NCBI GenBank assembly: GCA_017623455.1
Contig: JAGAPA010000011.1
Coordinates: 1 to 42,290, forward strand
DNA from: Clostridia bacterium
GTDB lineage: Bacteria > Bacillota > Clostridia > Christensenellales > Pumilibacteraceae
Direction of reading: 5' to 3'
Length of the DNA stretch: 42,290 bases
Shown here: piece after piece, positions 33,926 through 42,198 of the stretch
Layout: each line of letters begins with the position of its first letter
Position numbering within the stretch: the first letter of the stretch is position 1
Translations under genes and position numbers: made by a program
Notes under the pieces: model-generated
Seen by the model: the letters and a program-made list of their open reading frames with translations, nothing else
Told to the model about the DNA's origin: nothing
Database searches by the model: none

Positions 33926-36900
33926 TTAGTCTTTACTACGTAATAATTTATAAAGTTCCGCTCCCATTGTGTTCATAACACTAAGATAGAATTCATTATC
34001 ATTAAGCAACTTTTTATAAGCATCAGAATTTTCTAAGTAACACTGTGTTGCAATCTTTTTAAACTTATCGGGGAACAAACTCTGCACAAACATTTCGTAA
34101 TTATTGTCTTTAGCGTACCGCTTATATTTCTTTATCTCGCTATCGTTAAGGAAATTTTGGAAAATACTTTCCACAACTGTTCTGTCAAAATCACTGAATT
34201 CGCCTTGAAAAACCTCGTTAACCTTATCGATTATGTTTTGCAAAGTATCTTTCTTTGGAACTTTTGTCGTGCTTTTATCTTGAGATACTACCAAATCAGT
34301 ATCCTTTTTTTCAAGAACGATTGCCCCCTTAAAACTCTCCGTCAACATTGCATACTCAAGCTTAATTTTATCCTCAATATCAGGCTTAACGTGTGCAGGT
34401 TTAGGCAAAACTTTTAGCAAATGGCTTGCATAAACATATTCCTTGAAAAGTTCTTCATCGGGAATTCTTACAAGCTGAGTAACGTATGCATAGCTCTTTA
34501 CAAACTTACGTATAGCCATTCTTGCGTTAAACTTTCCCTCAACGGTATCTATTTCATCATACCTGTCAGCAACAGGTTTTAACATACTTGCCAATTTTCC
34601 CATAGCAACAGAATCCTGCTTTACAGAATGCGTAGACATAAATTTATAATACTTATCCACGTCATCAAAATTATAGAGCATATACTCCTGAATTTTACCA
34701 CGCAGAGTATAAACTCTGTTATAATCGCTAACACCGTCCAAAAGCGTTGTTTGATAATACGGCTGGAAACTTTCTCTTACCGTTTCATCATCGTTGGCAA
34801 AATCAAGAACAAAAGTGGAATCTTTACCCCTTGCAACCCTGTTAAGTCTTGATAAAGTCTGTACGGCACTGACGCCCTTTAGTCTTTTATCTATATACAT
34901 AGATTGCAATAACGGCTCATCAAAGCCCGTTTGATACTTATTTGCAACGACAAGAATATTATTCCTTTCCGACCTGAATTCTTTTCTGAATTTCTTATCG
35001 GTAGTAATAGAATTACCGTCAGCATCAAAGTTAAGCCCAGCCTCTGTGTACTCAATATCATCAACCTTTACGGTTCCCGAAAAAGCAACCATTACACCGC
35101 AACCTTGTCCCTCTTTGGGGTGCTCCTTCAAATACTGCTTAATTGCAAAATAATACCTTACGGCGTTTGCCCTGCTATCGGCAATAACCATAGCCTTAGC
35201 TTTTCCATTAATCTTAAACCTTCCACTATCCAAAAAGTTAGACATTATCATATCAGTTTTTTGTTTGATTGTATGTCCGTTCTCTTTATAATATTTAATC
35301 AAAATCTTAAGTGCCGGTCCCGTCATAACCTCAGGGTTTTCCGCAGATGTTCTGACAAGCCTAAACGCCTCGTTTATTGTGGTATAATTCTCCAAAACGT
35401 CAAGTATAAATCCCTCCTCTATCGCTTGACGCATAGAGTAAACGTGAAACGGTTTGTGCTTGTTAATAACAGGGTCAAAGGTTCCAAAAACTTCTATCGT
35501 TTTATTTTTTGGCGTTGCGGTAAAAGCAAAGAACGACTGATTATTGTGCTTGCCTTGTTCTAAAACCTTTTGAATTATTTCGTCGGTAACGTCTATCGTT
35601 TCTACGTCTAAACCCTCGTCGTCAGCAAACTTTTCAAGTTCCTTTTGTCTATCTATAAGCGCACCACGCAAAGTCTTTGCACTTTCTCCGCTCTGACCTT
35701 GATGTGCTTCGTCAATAATAATAGCAAACTTTCTGTCCTTAATCTCATCAAACTCCTTATGAGCAAACAAGAACTTCTGTATAGTACAAATTATAATTCG
35801 CTTTCTGTCGTTAATTGCCTCGGCAAGTCCTCTTGACCTACGCTTGTCATCTATAGCATCAACAAGTCCGGGGACGTGCTCGAAGCTGTTAATCGTATCT
35901 TGCAACTGACTATCAAGAACAATACGGTCTGTTACTACAATTACCGAGTCAAAAACCGCTTTATTTTCGCTATCGTGAAGAGAAGCCAATCTATAAGCAA
36001 TCCACGCAATAGAGTTAGACTTTCCACTACCTGCAGAATGTTCAATCAAATAATTTACGCCCGATCCCTTTTCCTTAACGTCTGCAACAAGCTTGTTTAC
36101 CACGTCAAGCTGATGATATCTTGGGAAAATAATTTTCTTCTTTTCTACGGTACGTATCGCTCCATTTCGTTCAACCTCTACCTTTTCGGACACACAAGCT
36201 ATAAACTTGTTAAGAATATCCAAAAGTCCGTCACGCTGTAAAACCTTCTCCCACAAGTACGAGGTTGCATAGCCATTAGGATTAGCCGGATTTCCCTTTC
36301 CTCCGGTCACTCCCGCTCCGTTACTGCCTTGGTTAAACGGCATAAAATACGTTGCGCCGTCTTGCAAGCAAGTAGTCATATACGCTTCGTATAAATCCAC
36401 AGCAAAATAAACAAGGAATCTATTGTTAAACTTAAAGCAAAACTCCTTGCTGTCCCTATCGTTTCTGAACTGTGTCATAGCGTTTTCTACGTCTTGTCCC
36501 ATATACTGGTTTTTAAGCTCCAATGCAACAATGGGAATTCCGTTTAACGAAAGCACCATATCTATCGTGTTGTTATTCTTTTTAGAATACGCAAACTGAC
36601 GTGTTACGCCCAGAATATTCTTTCCGTAAAGCTCGGTATGGTTTGCATTAAGCTCAGACTCAGGTTTGAAATAACAAATCTTAAGCTTCATACCCATATC
36701 CTCAATGCCGTTTTTAAGCACGTGAATAAGACCGTACTCGCTTATACAGCTCTCTAACCTCTTATACAGTTTTTCGGAAGCCTGATCGCCATAGTATTTA
36801 ACATACTTTGCCCATTCTTTAGGCTGAGAGCTTGAGATAAAATGCTCGAGCACTTCAGGATATATGGCACGCTCTTTATCATAAACGTACTTATGTATTC

Positions 36901-37012
36901 TATGCCCATTAGGATTAAGATACGAAAACTGCTCATACCCACCCTCTTCACTTATAAGAAAGCTTTCTATATCCTGTTCAAAACGTTTTTCAGATTGGTC
37001 AAAATCTCTCAT
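33926..37012 (-). CDS. hsdR: Type I restriction enzyme endonuclease/translocase subunit HsdR
   Basis: 1028 residues from the ATG at 37012, six bases after GGAGG (an in-frame GTG at 37015 is less likely). The N-terminal PD-(D/E)xK nuclease is visible as TIDMVLSLNGIPIVALELKNQ with Asp152, Glu166 and Lys168 (numbered from the GTG). The SF2 motor follows: Walker A HSAGSGKSNS (Lys332), DEAH box IIDEAHQGQSG (435-438), FFAFTATP as motif III and QTLSRLNRV as motif VI. The C-terminal helical part (about 800-1028) should bind the methylase core. It cuts unmodified DNA after translocation with HsdM and HsdS. The ATG lies 14 bases inside the end of the membrane-protein gene, so translation is coupled. 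All catalytic motifs are intact. Confidence 0.93.
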   Translation of the reverse strand: MRDFDQSEKRFEQDIESFLISEEGGYEQFSYLNPNGHRIHKYVYDKERAIYPEVLEHFISSSQPKEWAKYVKYYGDQASEKLYKRLESCISEYGLIHVLKNGIEDMGMKLKICYFKPESELNANHTELYGKNILGVTRQFAYSKKNNNTIDMVLSLNGIPIVALELKNQYMGQDVENAMTQFRNDRDSKEFCFKFNNRFLVYFAVDLYEAYMTTCLQDGATYFMPFNQGSNGAGVTGGKGNPANPNGYATSYLWEKVLQRDGLLDILNKFIACVSEKVEVERNGAIRTVEKKKIIFPRYHQLDVVNKLVADVKEKGSGVNYLIEHSAGSGKSNSIAWIAYRLASLHDSENKAVFDSVIVVTDRIVLDSQLQDTINSFEHVPGLVDAIDDKRRSRGLAEAINDRKRIIICTIQKFLFAHKEFDEIKDRKFAIIIDEAHQGQSGESAKTLRGALIDRQKELEKFADDEGLDVETIDVTDEIIQKVLEQGKHNNQSFFAFTATPKNKTIEVFGTFDPVINKHKPFHVYSMRQAIEEGFILDVLENYTTINEAFRLVRTSAENPEVMTGPALKILIKYYKENGHTIKQKTDMIMSNFLDSGRFKINGKAKAMVIADSRANAVRYYFAIKQYLKEHPKEGQGCGVMVAFSGTVKVDDIEYTEAGLNFDADGNSITTDKKFRKEFRSERNNILVVANKYQTGFDEPLLQSMYIDKRLKGVSAVQTLSRLNRVARGKDSTFVLDFANDDETVRESFQPYYQTTLLDGVSDYNRVYTLRGKIQEYMLYNFDDVDKYYKFMSTHSVKQDSVAMGKLASMLKPVADRYDEIDTVEGKFNARMAIRKFVKSYAYVTQLVRIPDEELFKEYVYASHLLKVLPKPAHVKPDIEDKIKLEYAMLTESFKGAIVLEKKDTDLVVSQDKSTTKVPKKDTLQNIIDKVNEVFQGEFSDFDRTVVESIFQNFLNDSEIKKYKRYAKDNNYEMFVQSLFPDKFKKIATQCYLENSDAYKKLLNDNEFYLSVMNTMGAELYKLLRSKD

Positions 37013-38246
37013 CACATTCCTCCGTATCTATATCACAAGCAAAACCCGTATCTTTTATTTCTATTAGTTTTTCATCATCACCATTTACTTCAAATTTTAT
37101 AGGTATTTTATATTCATTGCCTAATAAATCCTGAACAATAAGTGAGATATATTTAATTTCTTTATTTGAATAAAGCAAGGTGTTGAATCCAAATCCCAAA
37201 TAATCATTTTTATCAACATATCTTTTTACATTAGAATAAAATTTTACCTTATTTACTATTATCCCACTTAAATAAAATGGTGAAAAATCTGTATTCTTAC
37301 AAATCAAATTATGTATTTTATAAGTTGTCGCTTCGTCTGCCCTGTTTATAAAAAGATTAGAAGACGAGCCTTCAAAATCACTATTAATTAAAAATTTTCC
37401 ACTTATTTCTTTTGCTCTTACACCAAAGAAATTAACAATAGGTCTATATTTCTTTTTGTCATCTTCTTTTCTGTCTTTATCAGCTTTTTTAATAGTCCAC
37501 GCAACACCACCAAGCGTAAGGGCGCCACCCACAACAGATGCAACTATTGCTAATACAATGTCTTGTAAGTTTTTATCATTTGGGATTAAATATATTAAAT
37601 AAATAATCAAAGCTAACAGACTTAAAGAGTCAACAATAAAAGAAACAATGCTAAAAATACTTTTTTTAGTAGAAAAACCATTCCCTATACAAACCAACAC
37701 CGCAATAGAAAGCATTACCGCCGATATACTTCCAAATACAAATATCGTATTTAAAGAAACATAGTGACCTAAAACAAATAAAATTACTGCACATGCATAT
37801 AACCCTCCTAAAACAATACCTTGCATTGCTTTTGAAGGCAATTCCTTTTCTACCGTTTTTTCACTAAAACGTATTGTTTTATAGACAGCAACTGATATTA
37901 TAAATTCTAAAACCCCCACAACAATGCTGACACAAACAATAATCGCTATAGATAATAATGCCCAGTAATTATATAAATAACTTAGCGTTAAAATAGAAAA
38001 CAACGTAAATATTGGCGAAATTAATTTTTGATTGTGATAATTTTTATAGTCTGCAAGCGCATCAATATTACAAACAGCACAACCAATCCACACCCATTTT
38101 ATAATATTATTAATTTCTTTTTCAAAATGGATAAAAGGCAACACTAAAAAAGCAACGAAAAGTGTTAACCCAATTCCCCTCAGTAAGCATTTAAGTGTTT
38201 TGCAAAATTTATTTTTAGGTTGCCATAACCTTAATAAAGACCCCAT
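36999..38246 (-). CDS. Polytopic membrane protein with cytosolic domain, embedded between hsdS and hsdR
   Basis: 415 residues. About eight hydrophobic segments fill residues 22-251; the last one, DIVLAIVASVVGGALTLGG, ends in a highly charged KKADKDRKEDDKKK. Residues about 265-415 form a soluble, probably beta-rich cytosolic domain (KIHNLICKNTDFSPFYLSGI; YISLIVQDLLGNEYKIPIKF). No transporter or enzyme motif was recognised. The ATG shares one base with the hsdS stop (TAATG), and the stop overlaps hsdR by 14 bases. It occupies the same slot as the prrC anticodon nuclease in the E. coli prr locus, but the sequence is not PrrC-like. Codon use is strongly AT-rich. Inference: a membrane effector or accessory of the restriction system. 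Function unknown. Confidence 0.78.
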   Translation of the reverse strand: MGSLLRLWQPKNKFCKTLKCLLRGIGLTLFVAFLVLPFIHFEKEINNIIKWVWIGCAVCNIDALADYKNYHNQKLISPIFTLFSILTLSYLYNYWALLSIAIIVCVSIVVGVLEFIISVAVYKTIRFSEKTVEKELPSKAMQGIVLGGLYACAVILFVLGHYVSLNTIFVFGSISAVMLSIAVLVCIGNGFSTKKSIFSIVSFIVDSLSLLALIIYLIYLIPNDKNLQDIVLAIVASVVGGALTLGGVAWTIKKADKDRKEDDKKKYRPIVNFFGVRAKEISGKFLINSDFEGSSSNLFINRADEATTYKIHNLICKNTDFSPFYLSGIIVNKVKFYSNVKRYVDKNDYLGFGFNTLLYSNKEIKYISLIVQDLLGNEYKIPIKFEVNGDDEKLIEIKDTGFACDIDTEECDERF

Positions 38247-39493
38247 TACACCACTTCCTTTTTGCCGGTTACGTATTCGTAAATCAAAGACTTTTTATAT
38301 TCTTGCAACTTTTCAATTTTTTCTTGTTTGATTGCTATAAGTCTATCGATTTGACCGCATTTTTCGTCAAGATAATTAACCAACTTTTCCTGTAGTTTTA
38401 CACTCGGACAACAAAGAATAATTTGAGCAATTTCTTCCTGATTAATTTTAGGCATTTTTACTCGATTTTCTGTAACCAATTTAACTTGTGCCAAGAAAAT
38501 ATCCGACAGCATCATATACAATAAGTATTTCTTATTTATCGTTGTCTCAATAGGATACATATCAGCACTGCACAATCCATCAAATGGTGCAATTACTACC
38601 TTGTTTAACATCGGACGAACTTTTGAATAAATGATTTGCCCTTTAAGGAACAAATGATTATTGCTTTCAACCCCTGTTTGTCCTACAGTAACACAGGGCA
38701 ACAATCTGCCCGATCCTTTTTCTATATTTTCAGGTGACACTTGAAGATAATTCGTATATTTTGAAGGCTCTACTAAATTAGACTTAACAGTAGCTATATG
38801 CTTAAATTTAACAACTTGCCAACTTTTAGGAATTTTGCCTATCCATTCTACACCACTATCTTTCATCGGGGCGGATTTATCAAGACCTTTGGTAACGGCT
38901 TCCGTAATTACCGATTGCTTATATTCTTTCAATTTTTCAATCTGTTTTTCTTGATTTACAATTAAGTCATCCACTTGTGAAAGTTTTTTTGTCAATGCAT
39001 TAACTATACAATTTTGAACGTCTAATGAAGGGAAAGGAATATAATAATTTAAAATTGTTTCTGTATTGATTGTCCAACGATTATCAAATGAAATTCCTTT
39101 GCCATGAGCAAACATTGCCATCGTCCAATATTGAATCTTGAAATAATAATCAAAATATTTTGGATTTAACTCTACTTTTTTACGTAAATTTTGATAAGCT
39201 GGACTAATTACACCCTCAATTTCAGAAACATTACAATTTGCTCCACTATATAAATCCATAGGATTCAATAATAAATCACCAACTTTAACAGGATTATAGT
39301 TTTCATAACTTTCCGCTAATTGCCCCTCATTGGTAGAAATATCCCTTACCTGCACAGCACTTCTTGCCAATTTTAAAATTGTGGGATTTTTATCTCTCGC
39401 TTTTTGTTTTGAAAGATAAAAACAGTGTTTAATTTTTGAAACTTCCCAACTATTAGGAATATTTCCTATCCAATCTATATTTATATTTTTCAT
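38246..39493 (-). CDS. hsdS: Type I restriction specificity subunit HsdS
   Basis: 415 residues from the ATG at 39493; the open frame reaches further but the earlier part overlaps the upstream gene and lacks the family pattern. The two half-repeats are evident: WIGNIPNSWEVSKIKHCFYL and WIGKIPKSWQVVKFKHIATV each open a target-recognition domain (about 1-150 and 212-360). Each is closed by a long helix containing EKQIEKLKEYKQSVITEAVT and QEKIEKLQEYKKSLIYEYVT. HsdS selects the bipartite DNA target for both methylation and cleavage. The start shares one base with the preceding stop (TAATG), with AAGGG upstream. The target sequence cannot be predicted from the protein. Confidence 0.92.
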   Translation of the reverse strand: MKNINIDWIGNIPNSWEVSKIKHCFYLSKQKARDKNPTILKLARSAVQVRDISTNEGQLAESYENYNPVKVGDLLLNPMDLYSGANCNVSEIEGVISPAYQNLRKKVELNPKYFDYYFKIQYWTMAMFAHGKGISFDNRWTINTETILNYYIPFPSLDVQNCIVNALTKKLSQVDDLIVNQEKQIEKLKEYKQSVITEAVTKGLDKSAPMKDSGVEWIGKIPKSWQVVKFKHIATVKSNLVEPSKYTNYLQVSPENIEKGSGRLLPCVTVGQTGVESNNHLFLKGQIIYSKVRPMLNKVVIAPFDGLCSADMYPIETTINKKYLLYMMLSDIFLAQVKLVTENRVKMPKINQEEIAQIILCCPSVKLQEKLVNYLDEKCGQIDRLIAIKQEKIEKLQEYKKSLIYEYVTGKKEVV

Positions 39494-40350
39494 TATTGTA
39501 ACCCTTGTAAACTTTGCAATAAAACTGGTAAAACAGCAATCATAACATCTGTACCTTTTTCGGCAACCCATTTCAAAATATTTGCTATTTTACTTTTAAT
39601 ACTTTTCTTTTTACCCTTTTTATCTTTTAACAACTCTTGTATTTCTTGTAGTTGTTTTTTTATTTCCTGCGTTTCGGTATCATTCAACGTTTCACAATCG
39701 TCAAGCGCCTTGAAACAATCTTCAAAAGATATAGTAACGTTAACATTTGTTTCTTGATTTTGATTAACATTCTGATTTACATTAACTACTGTTTGCTTTT
39801 CTTGAGTTTGTCTTTTTGCTGTTTTCTTTTCTTCACATATCTCTACCAAATACAATTCCAACTTTTGTATAATACCATTAAAATACGATGTATCTTCGAT
39901 AGACCAAGACAACATATTATCTTCTTTTAGATAATCTTGTATTACTTTTCCAAAATCAATTTTCCCTTGATATTTTACAACAATTTCTGCGATAAAATTG
40001 TGCTTATCTGCCTTTTTGATTTTTCTTCCTCGTGCAATATCTTTTCTAACTTCAAGTATATATGAATATTGTGGAATTGCATCAAGAATACCTTTTAATG
40101 CAGATAACATTACTTCTAAATTTGATTTAATTTTATCAACAAAATAAGTTGTTGAATTCCCTGCATAACCAAAAAATGCACAGTTGTTCCAATTCACGGC
40201 TACCATATATCCAACATTACTTGCTGAAAATTTTTCGTGCAAGGTTCTTCCCCTTTCATATAACACTTTGTGAGCAATAGCCGTGTCTTCTTTTAATTCG
40301 TTGACTTCTTTGATAAAACTTTCAATTTGTTCAATTTGTTTGTATGTCAT
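39493..40350 (-). CDS. Unknown protein with Asn/Gln hinge and hydrophobic C-terminus, embedded between hsdM and hsdS
   Basis: 285 residues, no recognised family. Residues 1-180 look like a mixed helical domain with an aromatic stretch around 48-70 (GYMVAVNWNNCAFFGYAG). Residues 187-206 are a low-complexity hinge (VVNVNQNVNQNQETNVNVT), which may be a beta strand. Then a predicted coiled coil (about 210-245), a basic patch KDKKGKKKSIKSK, and a hydrophobic helix WVAEKGTDVMIAVLPVLLQSL at the very end that could insert in a membrane. This plan (sensor-like body, hinge, hydrophobic tail) is reminiscent of pore-forming defence effectors, but that is inference only. It shares one base with both neighbours (TAATG at each end), so its dose is tied to HsdM and HsdS. 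AT-rich like the next membrane protein. Confidence 0.78.
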   Translation of the reverse strand: MTYKQIEQIESFIKEVNELKEDTAIAHKVLYERGRTLHEKFSASNVGYMVAVNWNNCAFFGYAGNSTTYFVDKIKSNLEVMLSALKGILDAIPQYSYILEVRKDIARGRKIKKADKHNFIAEIVVKYQGKIDFGKVIQDYLKEDNMLSWSIEDTSYFNGIIQKLELYLVEICEEKKTAKRQTQEKQTVVNVNQNVNQNQETNVNVTISFEDCFKALDDCETLNDTETQEIKKQLQEIQELLKDKKGKKKSIKSKIANILKWVAEKGTDVMIAVLPVLLQSLQGLQ

Positions 40351-42122
40351 TATTCCAAAATCTCCTTCATTAGTTTTTCTTCTTCAATAGAAAGAGTTTT
40401 GAATTCTGCAAAAATTTCATCACTACTTCTTGGTGCAACAAATTTATAAAAAAGCCTTGTGAAAGGTATTTCATAACCGATTTTATCTTTGGTTCTATCC
40501 ATAAATGTAAGCGGATTATAAGGGAGAACGTTTTTGTTAAAGTATTCCCCTACGTCTTCAGTTAAAGGTATAATTTCGCTGTCCGTTTTGCCTTTAGTGG
40601 GTTGAGGCTTGCCTTTCTTCAAGATTTGCTTACCATTTTCATCCGTCAACGCTGTTTCCACCGTCACTTTGGTATAGCCGAAAAAGGCATTATCAAACAC
40701 CTTGCTTTCTACCGCAAGGTTACCGTTTTCATACAATTCGTCTTTACATTCGTTGTAGGCTTGTACAATCATTTCGATACAGTTATCGTCCAAATCCACA
40801 CGCTTATTACCGATATTTTTACGGCGCTTTACAAAGCATTTGCTTGCATCAATCAGTTGCACTTTGCCAAGACGGTGTTCGGCTTTGTCCTTACTAATCA
40901 CCCAAATATAGGTGGCAATACCCGTGTTATAGAAAAGGTCGGTAGGAAGTTGAATAATTGCTTCTACTAAGTCTTGTTCAATTAAATATTTTCTAATTTC
41001 AGAAGGTCCGCTACCAGCATCACCCGTAAAGAGTGATGAGCCGTTTTGAATAATAGCCATGCGTCCACTACCTTCCTTAAGTTTCTTTACACCGTTTAGC
41101 ATAAACAATAGTTGTCCATCGGAAATTTGAGGCAAGCCCGGTCCAAATCTTCCGTCATAACCAAGTTTTGCTTCCTTGTCAACAGCGTCCTTCTCTCTTT
41201 TCCAATCAATACCAAAAGGTGGGTTTGAGATTATGTAGTCAAACTCATACCCATAATACGCATCCTCGGAAAGAGTATCACCATACTTCATTCCGCTTGC
41301 ATTTCCGCCCTTTATGAGCATATCCGCTTTTGCGATTGCATAAGTTTCGGGATTGAATTCCTGTCCAAAGCAAGTAAGCTCGGAATCAGGGTTTATTTCC
41401 TTTACTCGCTCCGTCAAACATCCAAGCATCTGACTTGTTCCCATAGTCATATCGTATGCGGTTTTGTAGCATCCGTTTTCAACAATTTCATCCTTTTCAG
41501 GAGAAATTAACAGCTCCGTCATAAGATAAATTATATCTCTGCTTGTGAAGTGTGCTCCAGCTTCTTCGTTATAACTTTCGGAAAATTTACGAATGAGTTC
41601 TTCAAAAACGTAACCCATATCCGTAGACGTTATTTTGTCGGGTGACATATCCGCTTTTTTGGAGTTAAACTCTTGAATAACCACATACAAAACGTTGCCA
41701 TTAACCATTTTCTTTAACTCATCGTCAAAGTTAAAGTTTGTCAATATGTCTTTTATGTTATCCGAAAAGCCTTTTATGTAGTCTTCAAAATTTTCCGCTA
41801 TATTTTGAGGATCGGCAAGCAAACGTGCAAAATCGAACTTGCTATAGTTATAAAACGTATAACCGCTTGCATTACAAAGTGCACCGTCAAAGATTTCTCC
41901 ATCAGCGTTCATATCACAAAGTTTATTATACGTATCCAATACTTTTTGTTTTGTACTTGCAAGCGCATCGTCAAAACGCTTAAGCACCGTCATTGGCAAA
42001 ATTACCTTTCCATACTCGTGAGGCTTATATAATCCTACTAAATGTGTTGCTATTTCCCAAATCAGGTTTGCTTTTTCCTGTATGTTTACGTTTGTTTGCT
42101 TTTGCAATTCATTGATAGCCAT
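40350..42122 (-). CDS. hsdM: Type I restriction DNA adenine methyltransferase HsdM
   Basis: 590 residues from the ATG at 42122, ten bases after AGGAG; the ATG nine bases earlier is only one base from it. N6-adenine methylase motif IV is NPPF at 300-303 in YIISNPPFGIDWKRE. Motif I is the variant YDMTMGTSQML (Asp224), as in a subgroup of gut HsdM proteins, instead of DPxxGTGGFL. GAHFTSRDIIYLM and LTCFGQEFNPETYAIAKADM are typical. The N-terminal helical domain begins at ANLIWEIATHL. It is the first gene of the operon, with a promoter at 42170-42198. It methylates the host target with HsdS and is the core on which HsdR assembles. Confidence 0.94.
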   Translation of the reverse strand: MAINELQKQTNVNIQEKANLIWEIATHLVGLYKPHEYGKVILPMTVLKRFDDALASTKQKVLDTYNKLCDMNADGEIFDGALCNASGYTFYNYSKFDFARLLADPQNIAENFEDYIKGFSDNIKDILTNFNFDDELKKMVNGNVLYVVIQEFNSKKADMSPDKITSTDMGYVFEELIRKFSESYNEEAGAHFTSRDIIYLMTELLISPEKDEIVENGCYKTAYDMTMGTSQMLGCLTERVKEINPDSELTCFGQEFNPETYAIAKADMLIKGGNASGMKYGDTLSEDAYYGYEFDYIISNPPFGIDWKREKDAVDKEAKLGYDGRFGPGLPQISDGQLLFMLNGVKKLKEGSGRMAIIQNGSSLFTGDAGSGPSEIRKYLIEQDLVEAIIQLPTDLFYNTGIATYIWVISKDKAEHRLGKVQLIDASKCFVKRRKNIGNKRVDLDDNCIEMIVQAYNECKDELYENGNLAVESKVFDNAFFGYTKVTVETALTDENGKQILKKGKPQPTKGKTDSEIIPLTEDVGEYFNKNVLPYNPLTFMDRTKDKIGYEIPFTRLFYKFVAPRSSDEIFAEFKTLSIEEEKLMKEILE

Positions 42123-42169
42123 TGTTATCATTCTCCTGTTTTTCTTGTTTTTTCTTCGATTTCTCTTAT

Positions 42170-42198
42170 ATTATAACATAAATTATTATATAATTCAA
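42170..42198 (-). promoter_or_regulatory. Promoter of the hsdM-hsdR operon
   Basis: The minus strand has TTGAAT (42198-42193), 17 bp, TATAAT (42175-42170), about 48 bp ahead of the hsdM ATG. It is the only good promoter I see for the five-gene operon. Nothing recognisable lies in 42199-42290, apart from a weak inverted repeat too far apart to trust. Confidence 0.7.

What the first reader, a model, noticed from the sequence alone, without database searches (positions are those of the whole stretch)
33926..42198. Type I restriction operon carrying two coupled accessory genes of unknown function
Seen: order hsdM, 285-aa protein, hsdS, 415-aa membrane protein, hsdR. Three junctions are TAATG one-base overlaps and the last is a 14-base overlap, and one promoter precedes the set. 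Known: the E. coli prr locus keeps the anticodon nuclease gene prrC between hsdS and hsdR, where the restriction complex silences it until a phage inhibitor acts. Inference: the two extra proteins, one membrane-embedded and one with a hydrophobic tail, form a second defence layer (membrane damage or signalling) held in check by, or triggered through, the Hsd complex. I know of no described system with this pair.
Basis: partly seen in the sequence, partly recalled or inferred. Interest (0 to 1): 0.8.

Follow-up and report, generated by a model that had tools for sequence, protein, structure and literature searches.

The report
Restriction operon with swappable defence cargo
A gut bacterium's DNA-cutting defence operon carries two extra genes from unnamed families that turn up beside many different phage-defence enzymes, one of them a membrane protein, so bacteria seem to plug such add-ons into restriction systems as interchangeable parts.

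Summary
The five-gene operon is real: a complete type I restriction set (hsdM, hsdS, hsdR) with two extra coupled genes, P285 (hsdM-hsdS gap) and P415 (hsdS-hsdR gap). Neither passes a cut-off in Pfam or NCBIfam or has a convincing PADLOC match. Both associations recur. P415's family has a variable membrane part, a conserved helix (GGxxTLxGVAWTI) and a probably cytosolic, beta-rich domain. Of 50 relatives, 22 lie directly between hsdS and hsdR, 14 more near other restriction genes or a GIY-YIG nuclease, 7 near other defence-like genes. P285 or its tail lies near restriction or BREX genes in 6 of 7 loci. They are not an obligate pair: only this operon shows both. The gaps are slots for exchangeable cargo (KAP, TIR, AbiJ, RhuM, FRG and others), and recurrent cargo families keep to one slot. 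P415 is nearly always the last gene before hsdR, yet shows no robust co-variation with HsdR, and its halves recombine. I read it as a portable membrane defence module, not a PrrC-type toxin silenced by Hsd. Embedded accessory genes in type I loci are known; I found no description of these families or the slot rule.

The parts
40350..42131 (-). hsdM, type I N6-adenine methyltransferase subunit, 593 aa
   Evidence: Pfam HsdM_N 1.5e-22 and N6_Mtase 4.5e-55; PADLOC MTase_I 5.6e-225; NPPFG present
39493..40350 (-). P285: slot-1 accessory; N-terminal domain, Asn-rich linker, coiled-coil-like stretch, moderately hydrophobic C-terminal tail
   Evidence: TAATG overlaps on both sides; no family above cut-off; homologue in the same slot in G006/L015 and in a BREX operon in L014
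38246..39493 (-). hsdS, specificity subunit, 415 aa
   Evidence: Pfam Methylase_S 4.7e-8; PADLOC Specificity_I 4.2e-87
36999..38246 (-). P415: slot-2 accessory; 7 hydrophobic segments, conserved GGALTLGGVAWTI membrane motif at residue 240, charged linker, C-terminal domain that is probably cytosolic and beta-rich
   Evidence: 50 relatives
33926..37012 (-). hsdR, restriction/translocase subunit, 1028 aa (GTG start possible at 37015)
   Evidence: Pfam HSDR_N 3.2e-14, SWI2_SNF2 3.8e-26, T1R_D3-like 1.5e-11
42170..42198 (-). possible sigma-70-type promoter (TTGAAT-17-TATAAT, TG before the second hexamer)
   Evidence: consensus match only; such sites are common in this region and in its shuffles

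Best explanation
A complete type I restriction-modification operon whose two intergenic slots hold exchangeable second-line defence cargo. P415 is an inner-membrane protein with a cytosolic beta-rich domain, produced by coupled translation just ahead of HsdR. Most likely it is a self-contained, membrane-located anti-phage module that does not depend on one particular restriction enzyme: the diversified cytosolic domain senses infection or a phage product, and the conserved membrane part delivers the response (membrane disturbance or growth arrest) when the neighbouring nuclease fails. P285 is an unrelated cargo with its own recurring C-terminal tail. Shown: operon, gene overlaps, recurrence, slot fidelity, module shuffling, association with many defence classes. 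Inferred: translational coupling (from the overlaps), cytosolic orientation (from charge), beta fold (from crude propensities), sensing, the membrane effect and the backup role.
For: Of 50 relatives found by protein motif, not by context, 22 lie between hsdS and hsdR, 14 more near other restriction or GIY-YIG genes and 7 near other defence-like genes. Leaving out 4 re-found seeds and 2 of 3 near-identical loci, these are 18, 12 and 7 of 44. hsdM of this kind is in 18 of 297 order genomes, the window's included, so chance adjacency is of order 1e-4 per gene (my estimate). P415 and hsdR overlap or lie at most 3 nt apart, by the first start listed, in 18 of the 19 loci where hsdR is next (none located for L029). 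C-domains of 15 hsd-linked and 18 other members are one family (hhalign 99.6%, E 7.6e-25). In L037, L043 and L048, with HsdM 78-83% identical to the window's, the P415 C-domain is only 19-29% identical. The window P415 is a hybrid: N-half 51% like L043, C-half 63% like L073. Cargo in the same slots includes KAP, TIR, AbiJ, AbiU2-HEPN, FRG and RhuM. Mean K+R is 8.2 in the 30 residues after the conserved helix against 0.7 in the 15 residues before it, 51 proteins.
Against: The near-fixed position before hsdR would also fit a physical link to HsdR. With all 15 operons HsdR and the P415 C-domain do correlate weakly (r 0.31, p 0.003-0.005), and L073, with the most similar HsdM and HsdR, also has the most similar C-domain. 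7 of 50 relatives have no recognised defence neighbour, and 7 count as defence-like partly on my own knowledge. Nothing shows toxicity or phage protection.
Confidence: 0.45

Rival explanations
1. P415 is a membrane dock: its cytosolic domain holds the neighbouring nuclease (HsdR complex, GIY-YIG, GmrSD etc.) at the inner membrane, so incoming DNA is cut at injection and the chromosome is spared, a two-gene counterpart of SNIPE logic.
For: P415 adjoins a nuclease gene in many systems and directly precedes hsdR in 19 of the 20 hsdS-hsdR loci in which hsdR is in view. In L039 and L059 the next gene is a T5orf172 (GIY-YIG type) protein. SNIPE shows that a membrane-anchored nuclease can work this way (PMC13190303). 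A weak HsdR/C-domain correlation exists with all 15 operons (r 0.31).
Against: That correlation falls to r 0.20 (p 0.04) without the window, 0.19 (p 0.05) without L073, 0.14 (p 0.12) without both. Neighbours also include a SIR2-STALD gene and Schlafen-type helicases.
Confidence: 0.2
2. PrrC-like guard: P415 and/or P285 is a toxin silenced by the intact Hsd complex and released by a phage anti-restriction protein.
For: P415 lies between hsdS and hsdR, where the finding (recalled) places prrC; other cargo in these slots resembles abortive-infection proteins; a review calls PrrC an RM guardian (PMC12707154).
Against: PrrC orthologues are described as invariably linked to type Ic R-M (PMC2610378), whereas P415 relatives and P285-tail proteins occur with several systems; no PrrC-like domain matched.
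Confidence: 0.2
3. The accessory genes act fully on their own and merely share the promoter, like TgvAB in the V. cholerae type I locus; P415 could even be a non-defence passenger.
For: [quoted passage not shown] Cargo differs between operons whose HsdM and HsdR are alike.
Against: Each cargo family seen twice or more keeps one slot (1 of 200000 label shuffles was fully concordant), and P415 is last before hsdR in 7 of 8 loci where it shares the gap with other cargo, which a pure passenger would not need.
Confidence: 0.1

Closest known systems
rlo / mlo genes of Campylobacter jejuni type I hsd loci (Miller et al. 2005, not seen; as cited in PMC5183652)
   Same: Extra ORFs between hsdR and hsdS and between hsdS and hsdM
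   Different: P285 and P415 matched no named family here; slot fidelity and the cross-system range of P415 are not in the passages I saw
PrrC in the EcoprrI type Ic locus (passages of PMC2610378, PMC12707154)
   Same: Accessory defence gene embedded in a type I operon
   Different: PrrC is an ABC-ATPase/anticodon nuclease silenced by its R-M enzyme; P415 is a membrane protein with no such domain match and many neighbours
TgvAB in the V. cholerae VPI-2 type I locus (passages of PMC11411939)
   Same: Two formerly unknown genes embedded in a five-gene type I operon, functioning as phage defence
   Different: TgvAB is a GmrSD-type type IV enzyme whose two proteins need each other; P285 and P415 are not a pair and are not GmrSD
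DarTG2 inside an E. coli type I locus (passages of PMC12255303)
   Same: Defence cargo between hsdS and hsdR
   Different: Toxin-antitoxin pair; P285 and P415 matched no such family
SNIPE (PMC13190303: abstract and two sections read)
   Same: Inner-membrane anchor plus cytosolic domains, variable N-terminus
   Different: SNIPE has DUF4041 and its own GIY-YIG nuclease; P415 has neither, though two relatives adjoin a T5orf172 gene

Membership tests
Type I restriction-modification system | HsdM, HsdS and HsdR with methylase, specificity and nuclease/translocase domains in one operon | tested here: met
   Pfam and PADLOC matches, motifs
Type I restriction-modification system | Methylation and ATP-dependent cleavage activity | not testable with these tools
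   needs methylome and restriction assays
Embedded accessory genes of type I loci (rlo/mlo kind) | Same-strand ORFs in the hsdM-hsdS and hsdS-hsdR intervals | tested here: met
   16 of 24 hsdM-anchored operons carry at least one accessory ORF of 100 aa or more
PrrC anticodon nuclease | ABC ATPase plus anticodon-nuclease domain | tested here: not met
   no such Pfam match for P285 or P415 at E up to 1
PrrC anticodon nuclease | Exclusive linkage to type I R-M | tested here: not met
   P415 relatives near other restriction types, GIY-YIG and Thoeris-like genes; P285 relatives near BREX and type III-like genes
PrrC anticodon nuclease | Silencing by the Hsd complex | not testable with these tools
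   needs expression with and without Hsd
SNIPE | DUF4041 and GIY-YIG domains on the membrane protein | tested here: not met
   no Pfam match in the window protein at E up to 0.05, and neither family among the 19 families matched by any of 39 members scanned
CBASS 2TM-type effector | Significant match to an effector profile and a cyclase neighbour | tested here: not met
   PADLOC 2TM effector E 0.19 only; among 39 members three weak single matches, none an effector profile (MTase_II, HORMA, DrmC); no cyclase among the operon's genes
TgvAB / GmrSD type IV | DUF262 and DUF1524/HNH domains | tested here: not met
   no such Pfam match

The most novel reading that the evidence does not exclude
P415 is the prototype of a general membrane adaptor for restriction and other defence enzymes: one conserved transmembrane anchor with a swappable cytosolic domain that brings otherwise soluble nucleases to the site where phage DNA enters, in effect giving many unrelated restriction systems a SNIPE-like injection-site mode.
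Probability: 0.18. Interest if true: 0.88.

Novelty: new variant of a known kind. Interest (0 to 1): 0.6.

Why it matters
If the reading holds, type I operons of these bacteria are modular platforms with two addressable slots, each for its own set of defence cargo, and there is an unnamed membrane-protein family shared by restriction systems of several classes. That gives a simple search key (last gene before hsdR, GGxxTLxGVAWTI) for finding new phage-defence modules, and makes testable whether restriction is ever organised at the membrane.

Tried and rejected
Rejected: P285 and P415 as a two-protein system (together only in the window). Rejected: P415 similarity as a mere hydrophobic-helix match (the soluble C-domains alone match across contexts). 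Not relied on: co-evolution of P415 with HsdR. The first Mantel test (r 0.31, p 0.003, 15 operons; HsdM against HsdR gives 0.95) weakens to r 0.20 (p 0.04) without the window, 0.19 (p 0.05) without L073, 0.14 (p 0.12) without both and 0.01 without L043 and L044 too. Weak matches not used: G001 and G341, G364 (a 1025-aa protein unlike P415), G077 (no ORF recognised at E 0.01 on rescan), the PDB hit 4lba (E 0.0096). Treated as chance: the best Pfam matches of P285 (E 0.004) and P415 (E 0.099), below cut-offs, and single-member matches of other P415 proteins, such as TIR 0.0042 and HamA 0.0061.

Led nowhere: phages and plasmids by tblastn with P285, P415 and one P415 relative (no match); viral contigs (none; one, L150, P415 directly before hsdR on an IMG/VR contig). 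Phylum-wide search: 2 of 398 genomes, one being the window's own.

Limits: the 50-locus sample needs the pattern TLxGVAWTI, so conservation of those residues is imposed. The searching profile A4 held 5 hsd-linked proteins, 4 of which were found again (L024, L029, L031, L061); L062-L064 are near-identical. In L042 the contig starts in P415, so hsdS is not seen there. ORFs were called by length, so antisense ORFs hid some genes (hsdR in L029 and L045; hsdM in L026, L129, L131, L134); tblastn corrected L026, L029 and L045, and hsdM in L129, L131 and L134 rests. In L026, L066, L129, L131 and L139 slot 1 was taken as the gene just before hsdS. Non-type-I contexts rest on Pfam scans of chosen neighbours, not of every gene, up to four genes from P415; L063 and L064 were not scanned but cluster with L062. 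AAA_21 in L072 is below its cut-off. Read by eye: C5 methylase in L058, ThsB-like in L038, DUF262 in L068 and L150, the HEPN-like cargo family, the L149 helicase. The beta call for the C-domain is crude: the same Chou-Fasman scale labels the membrane helices as strand.
Full report
Observation. The operon is as described: hsdM, P285, hsdS, P415, hsdR on the minus strand, three TAATG junctions and a 14-base overlap. Domain searches confirm a complete type I set. P285 and P415 have no Pfam or NCBIfam match above cut-off and only weak PADLOC matches. P415 is a clear membrane protein; P285's tail is only moderately hydrophobic. The promoter is a consensus match and no more. The window is an entire contig of a 2.4 Mb genome, 77.6% complete.

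Recurrence of P415. In the window's family (74 genomes) P415 matched 4 other genomes; in all four it lies after hsdS, and in the three where the contig continues hsdR follows. A profile of these five (A4) was run over genome contigs: 65 stretches matched the pattern, 50 encode relatives. 22 of 50 are in the hsdS-hsdR interval: 19 with hsdR the next gene (in one, L042, the contig starts in P415, so hsdS is not seen), one with two genes before hsdR (L036), two after hsdS where the contig ends (L031, L066). One more (L068) follows an hsdMSR set and a DUF262-like gene. Three adjoin genes that look like other type I families (L054 by Pfam; L035 and L046 by my own HMM only). Others: L030 (ResIII), L033 (Type_ISP_C), L065 (Eco57I + ResIII); L058 (HNH_2), L062 with near-identical L063/L064 (N6_N4_Mtase + ICEA), L069 (GmrSD_N + HNH); L039 and L059 (T5orf172, GIY-YIG type). 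That is 36 of 50. Seven more have defence-like genes within four genes: L040 and L056 (SLFN-g3 helicase), L049 (DUF6119), L053 (DUF3427 + NUDIX), L060 (AAA + DUF2201), L072 (AAA_21, below cut-off), L038 (SIR2 + STALD, as in ThsA). Calling these defence-like is partly my own knowledge. For seven (L025, L028, L032, L051, L057, L067, L070) I found none. Without the 4 re-found seeds and two of the three near-identical loci the counts are 18 in the interval, 30 restriction or nuclease and 37 with any of these, of 44.

Range. A profile search of the order gave 15 of 396 genomes, the window's included. New were L090 (again hsdS-P415-hsdR), L093 and L097 (no hsd match beside them by my HMMs; neighbours not scanned), and two not used, G077 and G364. 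Across the phylum only 2 of 398 genomes matched, one the window's own. So the family looks concentrated in this order of bacteria. Record titles are mostly Clostridia, with a few Bacilli and single records labelled Paceibacterota, Gastranaerophilales, Parasutterella and Parabacteroides, which may be binning errors.

Architecture of P415. All 51 proteins have the conserved helix GGxxTLxGVAWTI (SG in L065; part of it imposed by the search pattern), then a charged linker and a C-terminal domain; from the motif to the end is 146-231 residues in uncut proteins. The number of hydrophobic segments up to and including that helix varies from 2 to about 9. Charge bias puts the C-domain in the cytosol; crude residue propensities suggest mostly beta strands. 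C-domains from hsd-linked and other loci are homologous. The two halves shuffle: N-half and C-half distances are uncorrelated (r -0.06, 15 operons), and the window protein is a visible hybrid of an L043-like N-half and an L073-like C-half meeting at the conserved helix.

P285. Homologues are rare: in 74 family genomes 6 matched at E 0.001, 3 of them besides the window over most of the length; 5 of 297 order genomes matched the protein and 5 of 376 the tail profile, the window's included each time. L015 has it in the same hsdM-hsdS slot. L014 has it inside a BREX operon, between an Eco57I-type methylase and a PglZ gene, followed by a TIR gene. L016 is a 6.7 kb contig; the one neighbour scanned is an ABC transporter. 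Proteins sharing only the tail lie next to a type III-type Res gene in L017 and one gene away from one in L022, and 2 bp from a helicase-type protein with a GIY-YIG-like start in L149 (by eye). So 6 of 7 loci have restriction or BREX genes at hand. By eye the tail (invariant E, W, K, P in 6 sequences) is joined to other N-terminal sequences in L017, L022 and L149.

Slots. I then anchored on hsdM, with no regard to cargo. Searches gave 25 matches, 24 operons after merging a mirror-image contig (G056). 16 of 24 carry at least one same-strand ORF of 100 aa or more in a slot, 7 carry none or only a shorter one, 1 (L135) could not be judged. P415 is in 8 of 24. Pooling these with the P415 loci, cargo families seen at least twice keep one slot: KAP 8 loci, AbiJ-like 3, AbiU2-like 2, P285 2 and two unnamed families 2 each in hsdM-hsdS; HEPN-like (by eye, no Pfam match) 4, a short membrane protein family 4 and TIR 2 in hsdS-hsdR (Pfam of members). 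Shuffling these 29 labels gave full concordance in 1 of 200000; relatedness of operons is not removed by this test, and P415 was left out of it. P415 itself is in hsdS-hsdR in 22 loci and behind hsdR in L068. Where it shares its gap with other cargo it comes last in 7 of 8 (not in L036). The nearest operon, L073, has HsdM 87%, HsdR 74% and HsdS 64% identical, but a KAP gene (split in two ORFs) where the window has P285, and an added DUF2971 gene before P415.

Mechanism. Against a PrrC-type guard: neighbours are too varied and no PrrC-like domain matched. Against a dock that grips HsdR: in L037, L043 and L048, whose HsdM is 78-83% identical to the window's, the C-domain differs at 71-81% of positions, and the weak overall correlation depends on window and L073. 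Against my reading: that correlation exists with all 15 operons, and L073 with the most similar HsdR has the most similar C-domain. For some link with the nuclease: P415 stands before hsdR with overlapping or near-touching genes in operon after operon, and twice precedes a GIY-YIG gene. The reading that fits most is a portable, self-contained membrane module that backs up whichever enzyme it is placed with, its cytosolic domain diversified by conflict with phages. The effect on the membrane is inference. P285 is a separate cargo whose role I cannot resolve beyond association with restriction systems.

Literature (open-licence PMC library, searches). Passages seen: rlo/mlo ORFs of C. jejuni (PMC5183652), RloF and GmrSD in type I loci (PMC4619093), TgvAB (PMC11411939), DarTG2 in a type I locus (PMC12255303), RM review (PMC12707154), toxin-like domains incl. 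HEPN and Sir2 in type I/III R-M (PMC3506569), PrrC/RloC (PMC2610378). Of the SNIPE paper (PMC13190303) I read outline, abstract and two sections. Miller et al. 2005 itself was not seen. None of these passages or listings describes the P285 or P415 family or a slot rule; that is a statement about these searches only.

Noticed in passing
window 40350-42131: HsdM methylase motif I reads DMTMGTSQM instead of the DQACGTGG form. Of 20 HsdM examined, 14 have DM(T/A)MGTSQM, 3 (L034, L061, L071) DQACGTGG, 3 neither by this pattern; 19 of 20 keep NPPFG (L052 is a fragment).
   Followed up: partly
L039 8662-10244 and L059 1141-3913: A P415-family membrane gene is followed by a T5orf172 (GIY-YIG type) gene, with a 4-base overlap in L039: possibly a membrane anchor and nuclease split into two genes.
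   Followed up: partly
L014 2561-15119: A BREX operon (BrxC, Eco57I-type methylase, PglZ) carries a P285 homologue and a TIR gene between methylase and PglZ.
   Followed up: partly
L038 8377-11683: P415-family gene directly upstream of a ThsB-like TIR protein (by eye) and a SIR2-STALD (ThsA-like) gene, i.e. a Thoeris-like locus with a membrane gene in front.
   Followed up: no
L150 2-6107: An IMG/VR contig (16 kb) carries P415, hsdR and a DUF262-like gene (by eye), so the module may ride on a virus-like or mobile element.
   Followed up: no
L136 3217-7306: A type I operon with an AAA_2 ATPase (Pfam), a 272-aa protein and a 258-aa protein that looks like an Ntn-hydrolase by eye as cargo: a possible embedded protease system.
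   Followed up: no
L140 (G056:C115): Contig is a mirror image with the same hsdMSR set on both arms, probably an assembly artefact.
   Followed up: no
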